Origin: Bacteroidales bacterium
GTDB lineage: Bacteria; Bacteroidota; Bacteroidia; Bacteroidales; F082
Assembly (NCBI GenBank): GCA_024400305.1
Contig: JAKSMX010000003.1
Span: 95,999 to 159,998, forward strand
Length of the DNA: 64,000 nt
Direction of reading: 5' to 3'
The notes under the pieces were generated by a model, which searched no databases, had not been told where the DNA came from, and worked only from the letters and a program-made list of their open reading frames with translations. A program made the translations under genes and the position numbers. This document shows, piece after piece, positions 55,725-63,908 of the stretch (position 1 is its first letter; the number at the start of each line of letters is the position of its first letter).

Positions 55725-56318
55725 TTATTCGGTAATAATCACCTTAAATGTTTGGAAGATTAACTTGACATCACCCCAAAAAGAGTGATTATTGACATAC
55801 TCCAAATAAAGTTTAATCTTCTCTTGCATAACGACCCCGATATAATATTTCTCAGGGTCTTCCGCTTGTCCCAGCAATTCATTTTCGTTTCGGAATTTAA
55901 CAGATGCCGGATCTGTGATACCTGGACGCACATCCAAGACATGCATCTGTTCGGGAGTCCAATAATCCACATAATGACGCACCTCGGGACGAGGTCCAAC
56001 CAAACTCATGTCGCCAATTAAGACATTGATGAGTTGTGGAAATTCATCCAATTTGAATTTTCTGATAAAATAGCCAGAACGCGTGACACGCGGGTCGCGA
56101 CCGCCCACAGTGACCAGACTCCCTTTATCGGAGCCCACCCGCATGGAGCGGAACTTGAAGATACGGAAATCCTTATTGTCCTTCCCCACCCGCACTTGTC
56201 GGTAGAAAACCGGACCTTTCGAATCCAATTTAATCCAAATGGCCAGAACAAGGAAAAGCGGGCTTAGGATGATTAGACCAAAACTTGATGCAATTATATC
56301 GAACAATCTTTTCATCAT
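55725..56318 (-). CDS. Initiating polyprenyl-phosphate sugar transferase (PglC-like)
   Basis: Starts glycan synthesis by moving a phospho-sugar from a UDP-sugar to undecaprenyl phosphate at the inner membrane. Seen: 197 residues; an N-terminal membrane hairpin (FDIIASSFGLIILSPLFLVLA); VFYRQVRVGKDNKDFRIFKFRSM near 35-57; LDEFPQLINVLIGDMSLVGPRP near 92-113, the catalytic Asp-Glu region; and YVNNHSFWGDVKLI at the end. The size is that of the minimal monotopic transferases such as PglC. With two sugar aminotransferases nearby, the first sugar may be an amino sugar. Confidence 0.9.
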   Translation of the reverse strand: MMKRLFDIIASSFGLIILSPLFLVLAIWIKLDSKGPVFYRQVRVGKDNKDFRIFKFRSMRVGSDKGSLVTVGGRDPRVTRSGYFIRKFKLDEFPQLINVLIGDMSLVGPRPEVRHYVDYWTPEQMHVLDVRPGITDPASVKFRNENELLGQAEDPEKYYIGVVMQEKIKLYLEYVNNHSFWGDVKLIFQTFKVIITE

Positions 56319-56492: not shown

Positions 56493-57266
56493 TCAGCACT
56501 TCCCCACATAAAAAATCTTTTTATAAGCATTACCCACAATATTCATCAAGGTCCAAAATGTGGCTCTTACAGGATTCATTTCCTCTGCTATACGAAATAG
56601 AGGATAATGTGCCCAAATTCTTTCCCAAAGAGGCTTGGGGGTAATTGACACCTTACGTCTTCTATATCTTGCGAGGTTCTCTTTTAGTAAGTAACAGGGT
56701 GCTTTACATACCACCTTCAGCCACATTGCGGTGTCGTTGTTCTTCTTGATGTCGTTTATCTGTATAAGTCCTATCTTTTCGGCATCGTACATCACAGACA
56801 AGCACCCTGGCCAGCAGCAGGCAAACATATCAAACTTTGATACTCGTTTCTTACCGCTCACATATACGCCAAGATCTTCACCATCTTCGGACATTTCCGT
56901 ATATTCGTGATATGAGAACGCATAATTGTTCTCTTCCATAAAACGTACCTGATGGTCCAACTTATCCGGAAGCCACAAATCATCCGAATCCAAGAATGCA
57001 ATCCAACGCCCCTTTGCAATGCGGAGTGCATTGTTTCTGGTTACAGCTGCTCCACTGTTATGGTCGTTACAAATATACTTTATTCTTGTATCCGATTCCA
57101 GATATAGTTCAATAACCTTGTATGTATTATCAGTAGAACAGTCATCTAAAATGATGAGTTCCCAATCATGGTACGTCTGCGCCAGCACACTTTTTATGGT
57201 CTCGCAAATAAATGGTGCACAATTCCAAGTGGGGGTAATGATAGAAACTAAGCCGTAGTCGTGCAT
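56493..57266 (-). CDS. Family 2 glycosyltransferase
   Basis: A 257-residue GT-A glycosyltransferase: VSIITPTWNCAPFICETIKSV at 7-27, ELIILDDCSTDNTY near 36, GAAVTRNNALRIAKGRWIAFLDSDDLWLPDKL near 72-105 with the metal-binding DSDD, and W-x-K / RRRKVSITPK near the C-terminus. It probably adds one sugar to the growing repeat unit. A 174-base AT-rich gap follows before the sugar transferase. Confidence 0.88.
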   Translation of the reverse strand: MHDYGLVSIITPTWNCAPFICETIKSVLAQTYHDWELIILDDCSTDNTYKVIELYLESDTRIKYICNDHNSGAAVTRNNALRIAKGRWIAFLDSDDLWLPDKLDHQVRFMEENNYAFSYHEYTEMSEDGEDLGVYVSGKKRVSKFDMFACCWPGCLSVMYDAEKIGLIQINDIKKNNDTAMWLKVVCKAPCYLLKENLARYRRRKVSITPKPLWERIWAHYPLFRIAEEMNPVRATFWTLMNIVGNAYKKIFYVGKC

Positions 57267-57299: not shown

Positions 57300-58028
57300 T
57301 TATAACACAGGACGTATATATACTCTTACCTTGAAATCTTTCTCCAATGCTTCCAGATCTTTCTCAACCCCTCTTGGGTTTCTAATAGTATAATCCGGGT
57401 CATAGACAAAACAATACAGACACTTGCAATTTGGATGTTGCTTATATTTAGCAATGTCAATGATAAGTTGTTCACCCAGTTCTTTGTCTTTCAAACCAGC
57501 CCTTGTCATTTTAACCTCAATGGCAATTTCGTCATCCTTAAGTAAAAAATCCATACGATTAGCTCCTCCTGCATAGGATGGAGTCCATTCTTCTGGTCTT
57601 ACATCCTTGAAATGCAAACAAAATAATGCATTCAACAAATCCTGCACATCGTATTCGTCAGTTATTTTTATTGTTTCGCGACCAGCGTGCCTTCGAAGAA
57701 GCTGCCTGACACATGTTGTGAAATTATTGAATATCGTATCCAATATTCCTTGGTAATCAACTTTAATCTCTTTAGGGTCAATAGCTTTAAACGCCTCTAA
57801 TATTGAAAGAATCGACATGCAATGATAAGAAAAATTATCTTGTGACACATGGGCCTCCATCGTTTTAATTTGGGGGTTATTGGGATAAGCATACTGCACA
57901 AACATCAGGGCCTTCCTTTTCCAAGGTTCATAAATACCATTATCCACATATTCTGTCAAACCCATAGAATCCTGTTTAACAGTTGCCATTACCCGATGGC
58001 CTTCTTCTATCAATTCGTCTATAGTCAT
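57300..58028 (-). CDS. PD-(D/E)xK nuclease, DpnII/MboI-like family
   Basis: A 242-residue protein. Residues 120-240 match the REase_DpnII-MboI-type domain: EYDVQDLLNALFCLHFKDVRPEEW, then Asp160 in NRMDFLL and Glu171-x-Lys173 in IAIEVKMTRAGL, the D...ExK active site, followed by FVYDPDYTIRNPRGVEKDLE. The N-terminal half is helical and not recognised. No methyltransferase is next to it, so it is not a simple type II R-M enzyme; related proteins occur in anti-phage and conflict systems. It lies between a glycosyltransferase gene and an HNH gene inside the polysaccharide locus. Confidence 0.75.
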   Translation of the reverse strand: MTIDELIEEGHRVMATVKQDSMGLTEYVDNGIYEPWKRKALMFVQYAYPNNPQIKTMEAHVSQDNFSYHCMSILSILEAFKAIDPKEIKVDYQGILDTIFNNFTTCVRQLLRRHAGRETIKITDEYDVQDLLNALFCLHFKDVRPEEWTPSYAGGANRMDFLLKDDEIAIEVKMTRAGLKDKELGEQLIIDIAKYKQHPNCKCLYCFVYDPDYTIRNPRGVEKDLEALEKDFKVRVYIRPVL

Positions 58029-58073
58029 AATATTAAGTGTTTACCGACTGCCTTATTTTGATGTGCCAAAAAG

Positions 58074-59213
58074 TTACTTTTTCCATTTCCCCCTTTGTAT
58101 CAACTTCAGAAAAAAAGATACCATATCATCTGATATGCTTTTCACCATTGACTCATCCAAAACACACCCATCCGGAAACTTTGCAAATGCGTTGTTTATC
58201 GCATCGTGAAGTTCCTCCTTGTCTTGTTTTTCTTGCCAAATAGCCATTATTCGATTGGCTCTATTTTCAATGCAAGGTAAGTATTCTTTGCAATATTCTT
58301 CGTGTGGCATATTATGGAAATCCAACAAGTCAGACAATGACAAAGGCATGGAGAAATCGCATTGTATTTCTTTTGACTCTATTGTATCAAAGGCATAGGT
58401 GATATTAATGGGTTCATCCTTTTGATAATTATCGTTGAGGACAACAACGTAAGGATAAACACTAAAATATTCCATATATGCATACAATAATTCTGTATCT
58501 TTACTCCCCTCAATATGAATCATATGAATCACCTGATTCGTGCCAACAGTATAAGGTAAAGTTTTTAATATGTACAAATAAATAGCCCCTTTGGTATCTT
58601 CAATTCCTTTAATGATAGGCACCAAGTGCTTTATTGTATCATAATCGTGAGTCTTATCCATATAAAAATTGACAGCAGACTTTATTATACTTGGGAATGC
58701 TTCTTGACTTACGCATAACCGCTTGGAAAGAGGAGAATTATGTTTTGTTACTTGAGCTTTCGCAACTATTTCATCTGCTTGCTGCTGGTTCAATTTTCTT
58801 TCTTTAACTAACCCGTTTAATAAACCTTTCAGCTCTTCCTTTGTTCTGACAGACAGCATAATCTCCGTCTTATCTCCATCTGTTGTAACTTGCTTATATG
58901 GTTTTCTGAGTCGTAACTTCTTTCCAGCATTTTCCACAATGATTTCGTGTCCATCTTTGTCTGTCATTATTTGATTATGGCCACTCTTTCTATTGCGATT
59001 CACTTGAAGCATATCCGTGAAATATGAAAGATCTTCTGCTAATACTGAATCCGACTTTTCGCCCAATTCACTATTACACTTCTTGCATATTATGGTTCTC
59101 GAATGAAGATGACCTCCTACTGCATTAAGGATAATATGTTCGTCAGTCCTATTTGAATCGTTTATTTCGCTGCCACATAAATAGCAGTAATATTTAGCTT
59201 TGCTATCTTCCAT
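58074..59213 (-). CDS. HNH endonuclease-like protein
   Basis: A 379-residue protein with an N-terminal HNH_5-type zinc-supported fold: Cys10-x2-Cys13, Asp24-Glu25-His26 in TDEHIILNAVGG, and Cys43-x2-Cys46-Asn47. The remaining 320 residues, rich in helices, are not recognised. Its ATG overlaps the acetyltransferase stop by 11 bases, so it is translationally coupled to a glycan gene that carries a poly-G tract. Together with the DpnII-like nuclease it forms a two-gene cargo that looks like defence; the target is unknown. Confidence 0.7.
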   Translation of the reverse strand: MEDSKAKYYCYLCGSEINDSNRTDEHIILNAVGGHLHSRTIICKKCNSELGEKSDSVLAEDLSYFTDMLQVNRNRKSGHNQIMTDKDGHEIIVENAGKKLRLRKPYKQVTTDGDKTEIMLSVRTKEELKGLLNGLVKERKLNQQQADEIVAKAQVTKHNSPLSKRLCVSQEAFPSIIKSAVNFYMDKTHDYDTIKHLVPIIKGIEDTKGAIYLYILKTLPYTVGTNQVIHMIHIEGSKDTELLYAYMEYFSVYPYVVVLNDNYQKDEPINITYAFDTIESKEIQCDFSMPLSLSDLLDFHNMPHEEYCKEYLPCIENRANRIMAIWQEKQDKEELHDAINNAFAKFPDGCVLDESMVKSISDDMVSFFLKLIQRGKWKK

Positions 59214-59750
59214 TTGTTTGTATCATTCGTCTTACTTCAGCAGGATTTCCATACGCCACGGCATTTGCGGGGATATCCTTGTTCACCAATGAGTTTGCGC
59301 CTATCACACTATTCTTTCCTATTACCATTCCATCGTGACGGGCGATGATGGAGCAATGCATCCCGATGTAGGCTCCATCTTCAATCACCAGATGGTTATG
59401 CTCCTGGTTCCGTCCATGGCAGGCGAAATAGACTCCGTACGAGATTATCACGTTGTTGCCAATCTCCATTTTGTCCACACACAGGTCATCAAGGTAGCAT
59501 TTCATCCCGATAAAGGTGTTCTTGCCAATTTTGAAGCCGCAAAGGCGGTAAAGCCCTATTCTCAAGGCTGTGGTCGCACAGTTTGGAGCCCACACCTGAC
59601 AAATCCACTTTCTTATCGTGTGCCATATCTGCTCAAGTATTGAGCGTCTCCACATATATGGAATCTGCTCATCCTTTACTCCGGGATGTCTCAGTTTATA
59701 ATAGAGGAGAAATACCCCCCCCGATTGGTTTTTATTTTATTGATACTCAT
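59203..59750 (-). CDS. WcaF-like hexapeptide acetyltransferase, frame broken at a poly-G tract
   Basis: O-acetyltransferase of the left-handed beta-helix type (colanic-acid WcaF/LacA group). The continuous frame 59655-59203 encodes 150 residues with WRRSILEQIWHTIRKWICQVWAP, IGKNTFIGMKCYLDD and IGANSLVNKDIPANAVAYGNPA. Upstream, a good start at 59750 (MSINKIKTNRG) leads into eight G (minus strand of 59715-59722) and then stops in the present frame. With nine or six G the frame continues through FLLYYKLRHPGVKDEQIPYM into the acetyltransferase, giving about 182 residues, the family's usual length. An internal ATG at 59655 might still yield a shortened enzyme. Confidence 0.75.
59715..59722 (-). 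repeat. Poly-G tract (8) in the acetyltransferase gene
   Basis: Eight C on the plus strand, read as eight G about 10 codons into the coding sequence. The homopolymer is exactly where the frame breaks, as in genes switched by slipped-strand mispairing. Confidence 0.85.
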
Positions 59751-59769: not shown

Positions 59770-61257
59770 TCATTTCCCTATCATTTTAACTCCCTTGGTC
59801 ACCAGGTTCAACGACTCGGTGGTTTTGATTTTTTGACTGAAGATTTTGTAGTTCACTTTACCGTTGATTTTCAGACCGTTTATTTCGATTCTGCTGATGT
59901 AATCCAGTGACTCTTTATACGCCACCTTACCTGTATTGACAATATACCACTTCTTGACATCATCGGCCAGATTGACTGTACAATTCCTGATTGTGATATT
60001 TGGCAACGCCTTGCGGGAGAGTTCCGGACGGGTATTGTGCGCCTCTTCCAAACCGAACAATGTGATCAGATAGTTCCGGCTTGCCGTAAGATTGAATATG
60101 CAGCTCTTGAACGTCAAGTCAAAAGGAGTATATGCATTATATGACGATTCCATCAGCACCGGAATGGTGTTCGTAAAAGTACACCTCTCGAAATACACAT
60201 CCCCAAACACGGAAGAGAATTGGTTATACATATCCGAGAACCGGCAGCCATAACATCTGACATCCCGTCCATAGCAATGTATATCAAAACGGTTGATATC
60301 GCAATCCCGCAGAACGGCACCATTTACGTTGTTGGAACCAAATACACCCCAGCGGGCACGTGCGTACAGACGCTCCCCAGTAAACATAGCGACATTTTCC
60401 AGATTGATTCCGTATCCGTAATGATGCGTCTGCGAATATGTCCCATTAATACTCACATCGCTCATCTGCACCTTTGCCGAGTTCCTTATCTGGATAGCAG
60501 CATCTCCATATAATTCATTGTCCTGAGGTGTTGTAACGGCAATGTTTGAGATATTGACATCAAAGGCATTGCTGATGGAGAACAGATATGTAATCTTTGT
60601 CGATTTGGCATTCCTATGAAATGTCAGGTTACGGTAAGTTTTCGGCTTGCCGATATGAACGGCTGAAGCCTTTGGCGAAGAGTGGCTATTATTATACGTG
60701 TAGGTCACGCTATTCTTCGCTACGCCATCCTCCACCACCAGTACGTCTCTTCGTACAGCCCCATAACTGTACCCTTTTCGGTCCTCCACCCATGGCTTTT
60801 CATCCTCTATTATCAGCAAATTGCATCCCTTTGAGAGTTCGTTATTACCCTTGAAGTTTCCGCCATCAATTGATGTTTTTGTTACCTGAACGGGTGTTGC
60901 GTCTTTTGTGCTTACAAACAATACAAAATTCTTTTGCGTATTCAGAACATTCAATTGAACTCCCGCAAAGTCAACTTCATCCGGCAGTGGAATTGATGCC
61001 GCATCGGCAGGTATTTCAATGTCCAACGATTTGATACCCCAATATGAGATGTTTGCATTCTTCTTGACTGCATCTTTATGGCAGTTCTCCAATGCCTTAT
61101 ATCTCTCAACTCCAGTTTTTGCCTCCGAAAGGCCGTAATCTAAAGGAGAGATAGGCTTGCTGCAAGCAATGGCTGAAACTGGGAATGGTAAAAGCAACAT
61201 TGTAAACAGCACAATGCCTATACGAAAGTCCATAAAATGCATATGATGAACCCTCAT
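59770..61257 (-). CDS. Exported right-handed beta-helix (pectate-lyase-fold) protein
   Basis: A 495-residue protein with an N-terminal signal sequence (IVLFTMLLLPFPVSA, Cys at residue 33 perhaps lipidated, although the lipobox is poor). After an LDYGLSEAKTGVERYKALENC start, residues 70-470 form repeated beta-strand rungs with Asn and aromatic ladders (LIIEDEKPW, VNISNIAVTTPQDNELYG, LRDCDINRFDIHCYGRDVRCYGCRF, ITIRNCTVNLAD), typical of parallel beta-helix enzymes. Such proteins in polysaccharide loci often cleave or epimerise the cognate polymer. The catalytic residues cannot be assigned. It is 3 bases after the GT4 gene. Confidence 0.7.
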   Translation of the reverse strand: MRVHHMHFMDFRIGIVLFTMLLLPFPVSAIACSKPISPLDYGLSEAKTGVERYKALENCHKDAVKKNANISYWGIKSLDIEIPADAASIPLPDEVDFAGVQLNVLNTQKNFVLFVSTKDATPVQVTKTSIDGGNFKGNNELSKGCNLLIIEDEKPWVEDRKGYSYGAVRRDVLVVEDGVAKNSVTYTYNNSHSSPKASAVHIGKPKTYRNLTFHRNAKSTKITYLFSISNAFDVNISNIAVTTPQDNELYGDAAIQIRNSAKVQMSDVSINGTYSQTHHYGYGINLENVAMFTGERLYARARWGVFGSNNVNGAVLRDCDINRFDIHCYGRDVRCYGCRFSDMYNQFSSVFGDVYFERCTFTNTIPVLMESSYNAYTPFDLTFKSCIFNLTASRNYLITLFGLEEAHNTRPELSRKALPNITIRNCTVNLADDVKKWYIVNTGKVAYKESLDYISRIEINGLKINGKVNYKIFSQKIKTTESLNLVTKGVKMIGK

Positions 61258-61260
61258 TTC

Positions 61261-62370
61261 TTATACATTTTCAAACAATGACATATACCTTTCTGCTATC
61301 ACATCCCAATCAAACGCCATCAGTTCCTCCACGGAAAGCAGCTCATACTCTTCATTATTATTCAGCAACTTACGTAATGCCTCTCTGATGCTTTCCACAG
61401 AATGCGAGTCAACAAACTCGCCAATCTTCTTCTTAAACACACCATCAATGCCTTCACCTTTGGTGCAGAGAGTGCTGAGTCCCTGGCTCATAGCTTCAAC
61501 ATAGACAAGCCCGAAAGTTTCATGGTGTGACGGCATTGCAAAGACAGCATTCTGCTGATAAAGTGATTGAAGTTGGTCTTTATCAAAAATCTTTCCGTGA
61601 TAATTAAGCCATTCCGGATTACCGGCAACTTTCGCAAGGACATCTTCGTGTTGTGCGCCATCCCCACCTACAAGGTTCAACTGCGCATCTGGTATTTCAG
61701 TCCTTAAGGATTGAACAGCTTCTATCAGACGAAGTACATTCTTGTTATTGTCAAACTTGCCGACATAAAAGATAGAATGATTGTCCCGTCTTGTAACATC
61801 CAAATGATTAAGCCAATACGCATTGATACCATTAGGTTGGATAACGGACTTTGCTTCGATTTCCTGCTCCAGACCTCTTAACGAACTATGTGCAATGAAT
61901 TTCTCCTTCATCGCAGGAGTAATGAAAATGATTTTGGAAGCAGCCTTCAAGGTTTTCCTGTGTATCGGCCACCATTGAGGGAACTTCATAAAATCATTCA
62001 AGTCTGTGTTCCTGACAGTTATGACGTATGGAGTTCCATATTTTTTATGAAGGCGATATGCCACTGCTCCATCAGTATAGGAAGTTGTTGCATCAATTAG
62101 GTCAAAATTCCTAACATCGCAACGCCTTTCTACATCCTTTAAAATCCGCCTTGTTTTAGTAAGGAACAATGCACGATGCCATAGGTGCAATATAGGAGAG
62201 CAAATAAACGAAGTGTTTTTAGCTTCAAATATATTTGCTCCTACGGTAGGATTTGATGTTTGAAGAGCGGAATATATAGTTTGTTCGACATCACGCTTAT
62301 CAAGCCTTTCGAACAACTCTTTATGTACCTTGCTGCCGGTATAGTATCCGCAAATGTGAAGGATTCTCAT
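61261..62370 (-). CDS. Family 4 glycosyltransferase
   Basis: A 369-residue GT-B enzyme: N-terminus RILHICGYYTGSKVHKELFERL; VYRL-type acceptor domain with YVITVRNTDLNDFMKF; C-terminal donor-binding domain with IFYVGKFDNNKNVLRLIEAV near 210, AVFAMPSHHETFGLVYVEAMSQGLSTLCTKGEGI near 280-315 including the E-x7-E sugar-nucleotide motif. It builds the surface polysaccharide together with the GT2 enzyme at 56493. It is 9 bases after the hydrolase gene on the same strand. Confidence 0.9.
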   Translation of the reverse strand: MRILHICGYYTGSKVHKELFERLDKRDVEQTIYSALQTSNPTVGANIFEAKNTSFICSPILHLWHRALFLTKTRRILKDVERRCDVRNFDLIDATTSYTDGAVAYRLHKKYGTPYVITVRNTDLNDFMKFPQWWPIHRKTLKAASKIIFITPAMKEKFIAHSSLRGLEQEIEAKSVIQPNGINAYWLNHLDVTRRDNHSIFYVGKFDNNKNVLRLIEAVQSLRTEIPDAQLNLVGGDGAQHEDVLAKVAGNPEWLNYHGKIFDKDQLQSLYQQNAVFAMPSHHETFGLVYVEAMSQGLSTLCTKGEGIDGVFKKKIGEFVDSHSVESIREALRKLLNNNEEYELLSVEELMAFDWDVIAERYMSLFENV

Positions 62371-62379
62371 AAATTCTCT

Positions 62380-63142
62380 CTACAATAACTCTTTCAATGT
62401 ATTATTTAAGAAAGGAGGATAAAGGTTTGCAACACCCCCGTGTTCTTTGTAGTCGGCAATATCTTCATACAGTTCAACTCCTGCAGCCTTCAAATCCGCC
62501 AGCATCCATTTGATGTGTTTTTCGTAGGTGTGCTCTTGGTTGCTGTAATGAAGATATACTTTTTCTGGTTTGATATCACTTGTCAGGATTCTGTTCCTCA
62601 ACCTTACGTTCAATGCCTGTTTCTTTTCTTCTGTAATATCGTCACCCAGAATGTACCTCAGATTTGGGAGGTGACCAGGGTCGCCCAGATAATCCCCAAG
62701 AAAATACTGAGGTGCTCCAATTATAACAGTTACACCAGGTATCAGAAAACTGAAATTCAAAGCGATATAGCCTCCCTTGCTGCTTCCGATAAATATTATC
62801 CTTTTATACCCCCCCAGTTAATTTACTACATAACAGCGACTTGACGCATTTCTCAACCCTATCTTCGACCAAATAGCAACCTTGATGGTTCGTTCCGAAG
62901 TCGTCTAAAAGAAACATCTTATCGCAATTGTAGGCAGATAAAGCCCTAACATAGTTATACCTTGCAGCATTGGGGGCACAAGCAGGGAATGACACTATAA
63001 GCGTGTCACTCCCTGCATTCTTGAAAAACATATACTTCACCCTCACACCGAATTCTGAATGTATCTTCTCGTGAAGGATTGCATTCCAACGTGCATGAAC
63101 ACGATTTTTGAAGTGCTGGTATCTTGTCTTGAGTGGAATCAT
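62380..63142 (-). CDS. Alpha/beta hydrolase (XcbB/CpsF-like), frame broken at a poly-G tract
   Basis: Two open frames belong to one protein. The first (start ATG 63142) encodes VKYMFFKNAGSDTLIVSFPA and MFLLDDFGTNHQGCYLV, then VKSLLCSKLTGGV and a stop at 62804. The second continues after the tract with YKRIIFIGSSKGGYIALNF, the G-x-S-x-G nucleophile elbow, IIGAPQYFLGDYLGD, and ends at 62380 with a YPPFLNNTLKELL tail. Seven G (minus strand of 62809-62815) separate them; six or nine would join them into about 253 residues. In the sequenced state the product lacks the nucleophile. The family occurs in capsule loci and may act as an esterase or transferase on the glycan. Confidence 0.75.
62809..62815 (-). 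repeat. Poly-G tract (7) in the hydrolase gene
   Basis: Seven C on the plus strand, seven G in the message, immediately before the nucleophile-elbow coding region. The reading frame breaks here. The flanks resemble those of the other tract (G-run followed by TAT). Confidence 0.85.
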
Positions 63143-63152
63143 ATTGTCTATT

Positions 63153-63908
63153 TTATATATGTTCTTCCACCCCTCTGAAATGCACATTCAGTTCATGCAA
63201 ATGCTCCAGAAGAGTTCCCAAAGAAGTTCCTTCTGTCATCTTTGCAAAAGCATTCACATCCTTAGGGAAGCACTTGCCGCCATAACCGAACTTGCCGTCA
63301 GGTCCGGGAACGTATGTATGAGTGTCGTTGATGTAACCAGAGAGCAGCATTCCGGTATGTACCTTGCGCCAATCACCACCCATCTTCTCGCAGTACTCAC
63401 GGCAAGCATTGAAGTAAGTCACCTTGTAGGCACCGAAAACATTATGCATATACTTGGTGAGTTCAGCCTCCAAAGGACTCATGACGGTGAATTTCTTGCC
63501 GACGAAAATCTTAGTGAGCAAGTCATGAGCTCCGGTGAAGACCATGGTCTGCTTTTGGAAGTCCTCAATATGCGTACGTTCCGTGAGGAACTCAGGCATA
63601 TAATGCACTTTATGTCCTGTCTCACGAGAGAGCATCTCACTGGTGCCAGGAAGAATGGTAGTGCGGACAAACACCGGCACGTCAGGAAGCTTGCTGATAA
63701 GCTCCTTCATCAATGTCAAATCCTGTGTTCCGTCATCTTCTGTCGGTACGTGAATCTGCAAAAACGCAATGTCAACATTACTCAAGTCATCATTATAACC
63801 CTTATAAGGGTCGCTGATGAAAAGTTTACACTCAGGGTTGTTGTGTTCCAACCAATCCTTCAAGGCTCCGCCTACGAAGCCACATCCGATAATTCCAACG
63901 TTAATCAT
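63153..63908 (-). CDS. UDP-glucose/GDP-mannose dehydrogenase-type protein, short form
   Basis: NAD-dependent sugar-nucleotide dehydrogenase fold, 251 residues. Seen: Rossmann motif VGIIGCGFVGGALKDWL at 4-20; VDIAFLQIHVPTEDDG near 44; RTTILPGTSEML; EFLTERTHIEDF; SPLEAELTKYMHNVFGAYKVTYFNA near 142; and the catalytic-type Cys in FGYGGKCFPKDVNAF near 217. The C-terminal UDP-binding domain of full-length enzymes (about 400 residues) is absent, so activity with the usual substrates is uncertain; shorter members with only the first two domains occur in glycan loci. It overlaps the longer opening of the hydrolase gene, supporting the ATG at 63142 for the latter. Confidence 0.8.
   Translation of the reverse strand: MINVGIIGCGFVGGALKDWLEHNNPECKLFISDPYKGYNDDLSNVDIAFLQIHVPTEDDGTQDLTLMKELISKLPDVPVFVRTTILPGTSEMLSRETGHKVHYMPEFLTERTHIEDFQKQTMVFTGAHDLLTKIFVGKKFTVMSPLEAELTKYMHNVFGAYKVTYFNACREYCEKMGGDWRKVHTGMLLSGYINDTHTYVPGPDGKFGYGGKCFPKDVNAFAKMTEGTSLGTLLEHLHELNVHFRGVEEHI

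What the first reader, a model, noticed from the sequence alone, without database searches (positions are those of the whole stretch)
62380..63142. Second poly-G(7) tract splits an alpha/beta hydrolase exactly before its nucleophile elbow
Seven G separate two frames that join perfectly if the tract is six or nine long; the join restores LTGG-YKRIIFIGSSKGG, a textbook nucleophile elbow. The product of the present frame lacks the catalytic serine. Two independent G tracts, both off-frame, in two genes of the same 12-kb locus are unlikely by chance when no other G/C run of this length was seen in the window.
Basis: partly seen in the sequence, partly recalled or inferred. Interest (0 to 1): 0.8.

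Follow-up and report, generated by a model that had tools for sequence, protein, structure and literature searches.

The report
Split sugar-coat acetyltransferase at a G-tract
A gene that probably decorates a bacterium's surface sugars is cut in two by a run of seven Gs, most likely a switched-off copy of an on/off gene in a bacterial group rich in such G-runs, although a plain broken gene is not excluded.

Summary
In detail: seven G on the minus strand (62809-62815) separate two frames of one gene, and the part read now ends before the GxSxG serine. Intact single-ORF relatives exist in three organisms. A profile of these and the two window parts hits the meningococcal capsule O-acetyltransferase SacC/CsaC at E 5.9e-19: best read as a polysaccharide O-acetyltransferase of alpha/beta-hydrolase fold.

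The chance argument needs change. This genome has 19 runs of 7 or more G, 14 of them between genes by my reading. In it and 11 relatives, exact runs of 6/7 number 352/46, but runs of 8/9/10 at least 38/41/11, a second mode; seven lies in the trough. Tracts inside genes of relatives hit acetyltransferases, a glycosyltransferase, BspA-type proteins and HsdS. Of five like-flanked tract pairs between genomes one differs in length. The 59715 tract sits at the start of a second acetyltransferase.

Phase variation is likely for the group and plausible, not shown, for this tract; a fixed frameshift remains open.

The parts
62809..62815 (-). G7 tract (C7 on the + strand) between the two frames
62804..63187 (-). 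upstream part: ORF from ATG 63187 (likely true start ATG 63142) with the N-terminal core of the enzyme, ending in a stop just past the tract
   Evidence: aligned with three intact relatives
62380..62808 (-). downstream part: open frame with GSSKGG nucleophile elbow (Ser 62779-62781), GAPQ, conserved Glu and His; no common start codon before the serine
61261..62370 (-). glycosyltransferase gene (Glycos_transf_1) directly downstream
   Evidence: E 4.1e-27
63153..63908 (-). UDP-glucose/GDP-mannose dehydrogenase family gene directly upstream
   Evidence: UDPG_MGDP_dh E 1.6e-16
59715..59722 (-). first tract, G8, between an upstream ATG and the conserved N-terminus of a hexapeptide acetyltransferase, out of frame as it stands
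   Evidence: homologues L074 and L075/L076/L097/L098 match upstream of ATG 59655
59203..59655 (-). hexapeptide-repeat acetyltransferase ORF from its internal ATG; conserved sequence continues upstream to about 59706
59770..61257 (-). 495-aa protein, signal-like N-terminus by eye, no Pfam or NCBIfam family, in the same gene run
55725..56318 (-). initiating sugar transferase (Bac_transf): surface-polysaccharide context
   Evidence: E 1.6e-62
56493..57266 (-). glycosyltransferase family 2
   Evidence: E 1.6e-36

Best explanation
The gene encodes a surface-polysaccharide O-acetyltransferase related to SacC/CsaC (alpha/beta-hydrolase fold) in an exopolysaccharide or capsule locus, and is caught in an OFF state of slipped-strand phase variation: the length of the G tract sets whether ribosomes reach the half with the catalytic serine. 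Shown: the split, the intact relatives, the kinship to CsaC, the second mode of G-run lengths in the group, and tracts inside surface and restriction-modification genes of relatives. Inferred: that this tract changes length at a useful rate, and that polysaccharide acetylation is what switches. The neighbouring G8 at the start of a hexapeptide acetyltransferase suggests two independently switched decorations of one polymer.
For: Two open halves with no other stop or shift, GC and GC3 like the adjacent genes. All 3 relatives examined are single ORFs with no Gly-Gly at that loop. Profile A1 hits SacC at E 5.9e-19 and an XcbB/CpsF-family protein at 5.3e-07; CsaC Ser114 and Gln138 align to identical residues. 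Same gene company (nucleotide-sugar dehydrogenase, GT4, acyltransferase) in the L. lactis plasmid locus. G-run lengths in G000-G011: exact 6 352 and exact 7 46, then at least 38, 41 and 11 of lengths 8, 9, 10 (plus the window's G8), where the 6-to-7 decay predicts 6.0, 0.79 and 0.10; 93 of 99 same-genus genomes, own included, have a run of 8 or more. Tracts in genes of relatives: hexapeptide acetyltransferases, Acyl_transf_3, GT2, Polysacc_synt_2, AMP-binding, BspA-type LRR, HsdS, Dam. The own genome has another G7, in frame, in an Acyl_transf_3 gene (L045). L145 (G010) and L151 (G011), flanks 80% alike over 60 nt and 100% over 32 nt, have 8 and 9 G.
Against: G7 is shorter than the mode and than the 8 shown to switch in Campylobacter (PMC6321876, passages). 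14 of the 19 own tracts of 7 or more lie between genes by my reading. Of five like-flanked tract pairs between different genomes four have equal lengths. Of 18 tracts that I took as coding in relatives 14 are in frame and 4 split, though my choice favours in-frame ones and three of the 14 (L053 first, L054 second, L056) are at a 3' end. Two tracts within 3.1 kb among 19 in 2.86 Mb is only mildly surprising (my arithmetic: about 0.04 expected). Length variation at this site could not be looked for. The tract lies mid-gene, not near the start as in the clearest cases.
Confidence: 0.55

Rival explanations
1. A recent, fixed frameshift: the gene is a young pseudogene broken at a short homopolymer, a usual place for an indel, with no switching.
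For: G7 belongs to the length class that chance supplies (46 exact G7 beside 352 exact G6 in 12 genomes). No accepted relative in 98 other same-genus genomes, so perhaps recently acquired and dispensable.
Against: No second lesion in about 760 nt. The break is in an all-G tract coding Gly-Gly where the three relatives have none, while GGG is the rarest glycine codon in 12 neighbouring genes (36 of 260).
Confidence: 0.27
2. Assembly or sequencing error: the true tract joins the frames and the gene is whole.
For: Draft genome of 76 contigs; homopolymers are a usual site of such errors (recalled).
Against: Runs of 8-10 G are carried in the same assembly; the sequencing method is not known here, so this is weak.
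Confidence: 0.09
3. Programmed frameshifting or transcriptional slippage on the G tract makes some whole protein from the present sequence.
For: Homopolymer at the junction; both halves otherwise open.
Against: The frame relation is not that of a canonical -1 shift (from the frames); the intact relatives need none.
Confidence: 0.06
4. Two separate proteins.
For: Two ORFs are listed.
Against: All 3 relatives examined are single ORFs; the downstream part has no common start codon before the catalytic serine.
Confidence: 0.02

Closest known systems
CsaC/SacC, capsule O-acetyltransferase of Neisseria meningitidis serogroup A (PDB 6yuo/6yus; PMC7501274, passages read)
   Same: Profile match over 219 positions; GxSxG serine and the unusual Gln138 conserved; polysaccharide-locus enzyme of alpha/beta-hydrolase fold.
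   Different: Asp198 aligns to Glu in all four sequences, His201 to Tyr or Phe; substrate unknown; 'phase variation' does not occur in that paper's main text.
Poly-G contingency genes of Campylobacter (PMC6321876, passages read)
   Same: Tract lengths peak at 9-10 there and 8-9 here; frame-setting tracts inside ORFs.
   Different: Different phylum; there 77% of tracts are in ORFs, here 5 of 19 in the own genome; this tract has only seven G and no shown variation.
Invertible-promoter phase variation of Bacteroides capsules (review PMC11868660, passages read)
   Same: Switches surface polysaccharide in Bacteroides.
   Different: DNA inversion, not tract length.

Membership tests
Slipped-strand (poly-G) phase-variable gene | homopolymer inside the gene that sets the frame | tested here: met
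Slipped-strand (poly-G) phase-variable gene | tract length in the hypermutable range (8 or more shown, 7 or more used as cut-off in Campylobacter) | tested here: inconclusive
   G7: at the cut-off, below the shown length
Slipped-strand (poly-G) phase-variable gene | tract length varies between clones or close relatives | not testable with these tools
   no accepted relative in 98 other same-genus genomes; for other tracts 1 of 5 like-flanked pairs between genomes differs
Slipped-strand (poly-G) phase-variable gene | intact homologues exist | tested here: met
   3 of 3 examined
CsaC/SacC capsule O-acetyltransferase (here called a relative, not a member) | sequence kinship over the catalytic domain | tested here: met
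   profile A1, E 5.9e-19
CsaC/SacC capsule O-acetyltransferase (here called a relative, not a member) | Ser114 in GxSxG and Gln138 | tested here: met
   alignment with residue numbers
CsaC/SacC capsule O-acetyltransferase (here called a relative, not a member) | Asp198 and His201 | tested here: not met
   Glu, and Tyr or Phe, at the aligned places
CsaC/SacC capsule O-acetyltransferase (here called a relative, not a member) | His228 | tested here: inconclusive
   a His present in all four sequences lies one column away in the alignment
CsaC/SacC capsule O-acetyltransferase (here called a relative, not a member) | acetyl transfer to a polysaccharide | not testable with these tools
   needs an enzyme assay

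The most novel reading that the evidence does not exclude
This Bacteroidales-like genus, and perhaps its order (exact G9 runs in 146 of 198 genomes drawn), carries a large, so far undescribed poly-G switch system that acts on surface-sugar acetylation, BspA-type surface proteins and restriction specificity, and has a second, intergenic form: a composite element of G8-10 followed by TA, with a TTGATTATCAA palindrome at set spacing, near promoter-like sites.
Probability: 0.35. Interest if true: 0.75.

Novelty: new member of a known kind. Interest (0 to 1): 0.5.

Why it matters
Bacteroides are known for switching surface sugars by DNA inversion (review PMC11868660, passages). Tract-length switching of polysaccharide acetylation, if real here, would add a second and finer layer of surface variation towards phages and hosts. 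The listings showed no title or abstract start on poly-G phase variation in Prevotella or Bacteroidales; only open-licence PMC papers are held and only the first rows were listed, so this absence is weak.

Tried and rejected
Closeness of the two window tracts as proof: rejected. 19 tracts of 7 or more in 2.86 Mb give by my arithmetic about 0.04 expected neighbours within 3.1 kb of a given one, and two others on contig C1 are 2.7 kb apart.

Relatives of the gene: upstream part 0 of 98 other same-genus genomes; downstream part 1 of 98, 28% over 64 residues, not accepted; phylum draw, own genome only of 395. The Caballeronia match was not examined. Pfam and NCBIfam gave nothing for either part. 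phmmer of the downstream part alone gave SacC only at E 0.04. Pfam on the three whole relatives gave only sub-threshold hits.

Searches were idle waits.

Incomplete counts: six listed tract places were not fetched (five in G002, one in G010); G002's places were listed only in part; G012 onwards was not fetched. One of the 90 tracts (13 G, L125) abuts N and may be an artefact. The window's G8 was added by hand to the 37 runs of 8. The intergenic and coding calls are my reading of ORF lists; many frames that the script flagged look like chance frames, and enrichment of gene classes was not tested.

Organism: not named. Prevotella-like Bacteroidales is inferred from TAnnTTTG promoter-like sites (motif recalled), BspA-type proteins and an order of over 100 families in the draw.

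Full report
What is there. On the minus strand a run of seven G (62809-62815) lies between two open frames. The first, from ATG 63187 or, better by the alignment, ATG 63142, stops at 62804. The second runs from the tract to 62380 and holds GSSKGG and GAPQ. It has no ATG, GTG or TTG before the serine. Only two G/C runs of six or more exist in the window, this one and a G8 at 59715-59722.

What the gene is. The downstream part found a 44.5% match in an exopolysaccharide locus of a Lactococcus lactis plasmid and a 31% match in Caballeronia, and 40% and 33% matches in Listeria fleischmannii and Rummeliibacillus suwonensis. Three were taken further (L004, L005, L006; not Caballeronia): single ORFs of 263, 265 and 327 aa with the elbow in place. 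A profile of these and the two window parts hits SacC of Neisseria meningitidis A at E 5.9e-19 over 219 positions, and an XcbB/CpsF-family protein at 5.3e-07. With CsaC numbering (PMC7501274, passages), Ser114 and Gln138 align to identical residues; Asp198 aligns to Glu, His201 to Tyr or Phe, and a His common to all four sequences lies one column from His228. That paper notes Gln138 in several uncharacterised proteins. The neighbours are a UDP-glucose/GDP-mannose dehydrogenase and a glycosyltransferase, with an initiating sugar transferase and a GT2 further on; the L. lactis locus has like company. The likely role is O-acetylation of a surface polysaccharide; esterase activity is not excluded. 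I call it a relative of CsaC, not a member, as two CsaC residues are not met.

How unusual the tract is. Own genome: 19 runs of 7 or more G, 30 exact G6. In G000-G011 exact 6 and 7 number 352 and 46 (sums over the rows), and runs of 8, 9, 10 at least 38, 41 and 11 (plus the window's G8). The 6-to-7 decay predicts 6.0, 0.79 and 0.10. So there is a second mode at 8-9, as in Campylobacter at 9-10 (PMC6321876, passages), and seven lies between. Against the reading: 14 of the 19 own tracts are between genes by my reading.

Tracts in genes of relatives. I took 18 as coding. In frame, 14: L053 (three: two hexapeptide acetyltransferases and one gene whose downstream part has no Pfam family), L054 (AMP-binding; HpcH_HpaI), L056 (Polysacc_synt_2), L063 and L149 (Methylase_S, HsdS type), L068 (GT2), L111 and L129 (Acyl_transf_3), L113 (BspA-type LRR), L128, L138 (Dam). 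Split, 4: L069, L133, L151 (BspA-type LRR) and L153 (not scanned) (families). L109 (HTH_18) and L119 (ATPase_2) have a tract before an open frame without an upstream ATG and stay unclear. Of 10 tract pairs with like flanks 3 differ in length; two of these are repeat copies within the own genome, and of the 5 pairs between genomes 1 differs (L145 with 8, L151 with 9).

The four exact G7 runs of the own genome: this one; one in frame in Acyl_transf_3 (L045); one near the end of an ORF in a region phage-like by eye (L046); one between genes (L050).

The first tract. The hexapeptide acetyltransferase at 59203-59655 has conserved sequence upstream of its ATG: G071 matches 62% over query residues 2-99, and G058 and G060 match in pieces with stops. 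Read by eye, those homologues begin about where the tract lies. The window's ATG-led frame ends soon after its G8. This is the usual contingency layout and strengthens the case for the locus.

Judgement. The best reading is an OFF state of a tract-switched acetyltransferase (0.55). A fixed frameshift is the main rival (0.27). Length variation at this site is the missing fact. I made no joined form of the gene, because in meningococci a csaC stop mutant lost recognition by capsule antibodies (PMC6086313, passages).

Noticed in passing
own genome L037-L043, L047-L049, L051, L052; relatives L053-L072, L102-L154: 62 of 90 runs of 8 or more G are followed by TA. Of these 62, 19 have a TTGATTATCAA-like palindrome (at most 1 mismatch) within 50 nt against 0.7% with shuffled flanks and 1 of the 28 other tracts; of 20 downstream copies with at most 2 mismatches 15 are at a 7-nt spacing. 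The 62809 tract has none; the 59715 tract has a 2-mismatch copy upstream.
   Followed up: partly
L037, L038 (two), L041, L047, L048: A repeat on the C strand with a TAnnTTTG promoter-like site in most copies, a short ORF whose C tract would code prolines, and a GC hairpin with T run; in L038 and L041 upstream of lipoprotein-like genes (by eye). Looks like a leader with a variable tract (8 to 10).
   Followed up: partly
L043, L049, L051, L052, and L057, L059-L061, L065 in G002: A second repeat family with G8-9 about 50-60 nt upstream of a TAACTTTG promoter-like site; 11 such sites on the C strand of the 62 TA tracts fall in that 10-nt distance bin, background 0.076 per 150 nt.
   Followed up: partly
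G002 contig C5, L053 and L054: Five tracts of 8-10 G within about 31 kb, in or at the end of two hexapeptide acetyltransferases, a gene with a sugar-transferase-like start (by eye), an AMP-binding gene and an HpcH_HpaI gene.
   Followed up: partly
57300-59213: A DpnII/MboI-type restriction endonuclease and an HNH_5 protein sit inside the polysaccharide gene run.
   Followed up: no
L075, L076, L097, L098 (G060, G058): The homologue of the hexapeptide acetyltransferase is itself broken by stops in two relatives.
   Followed up: no
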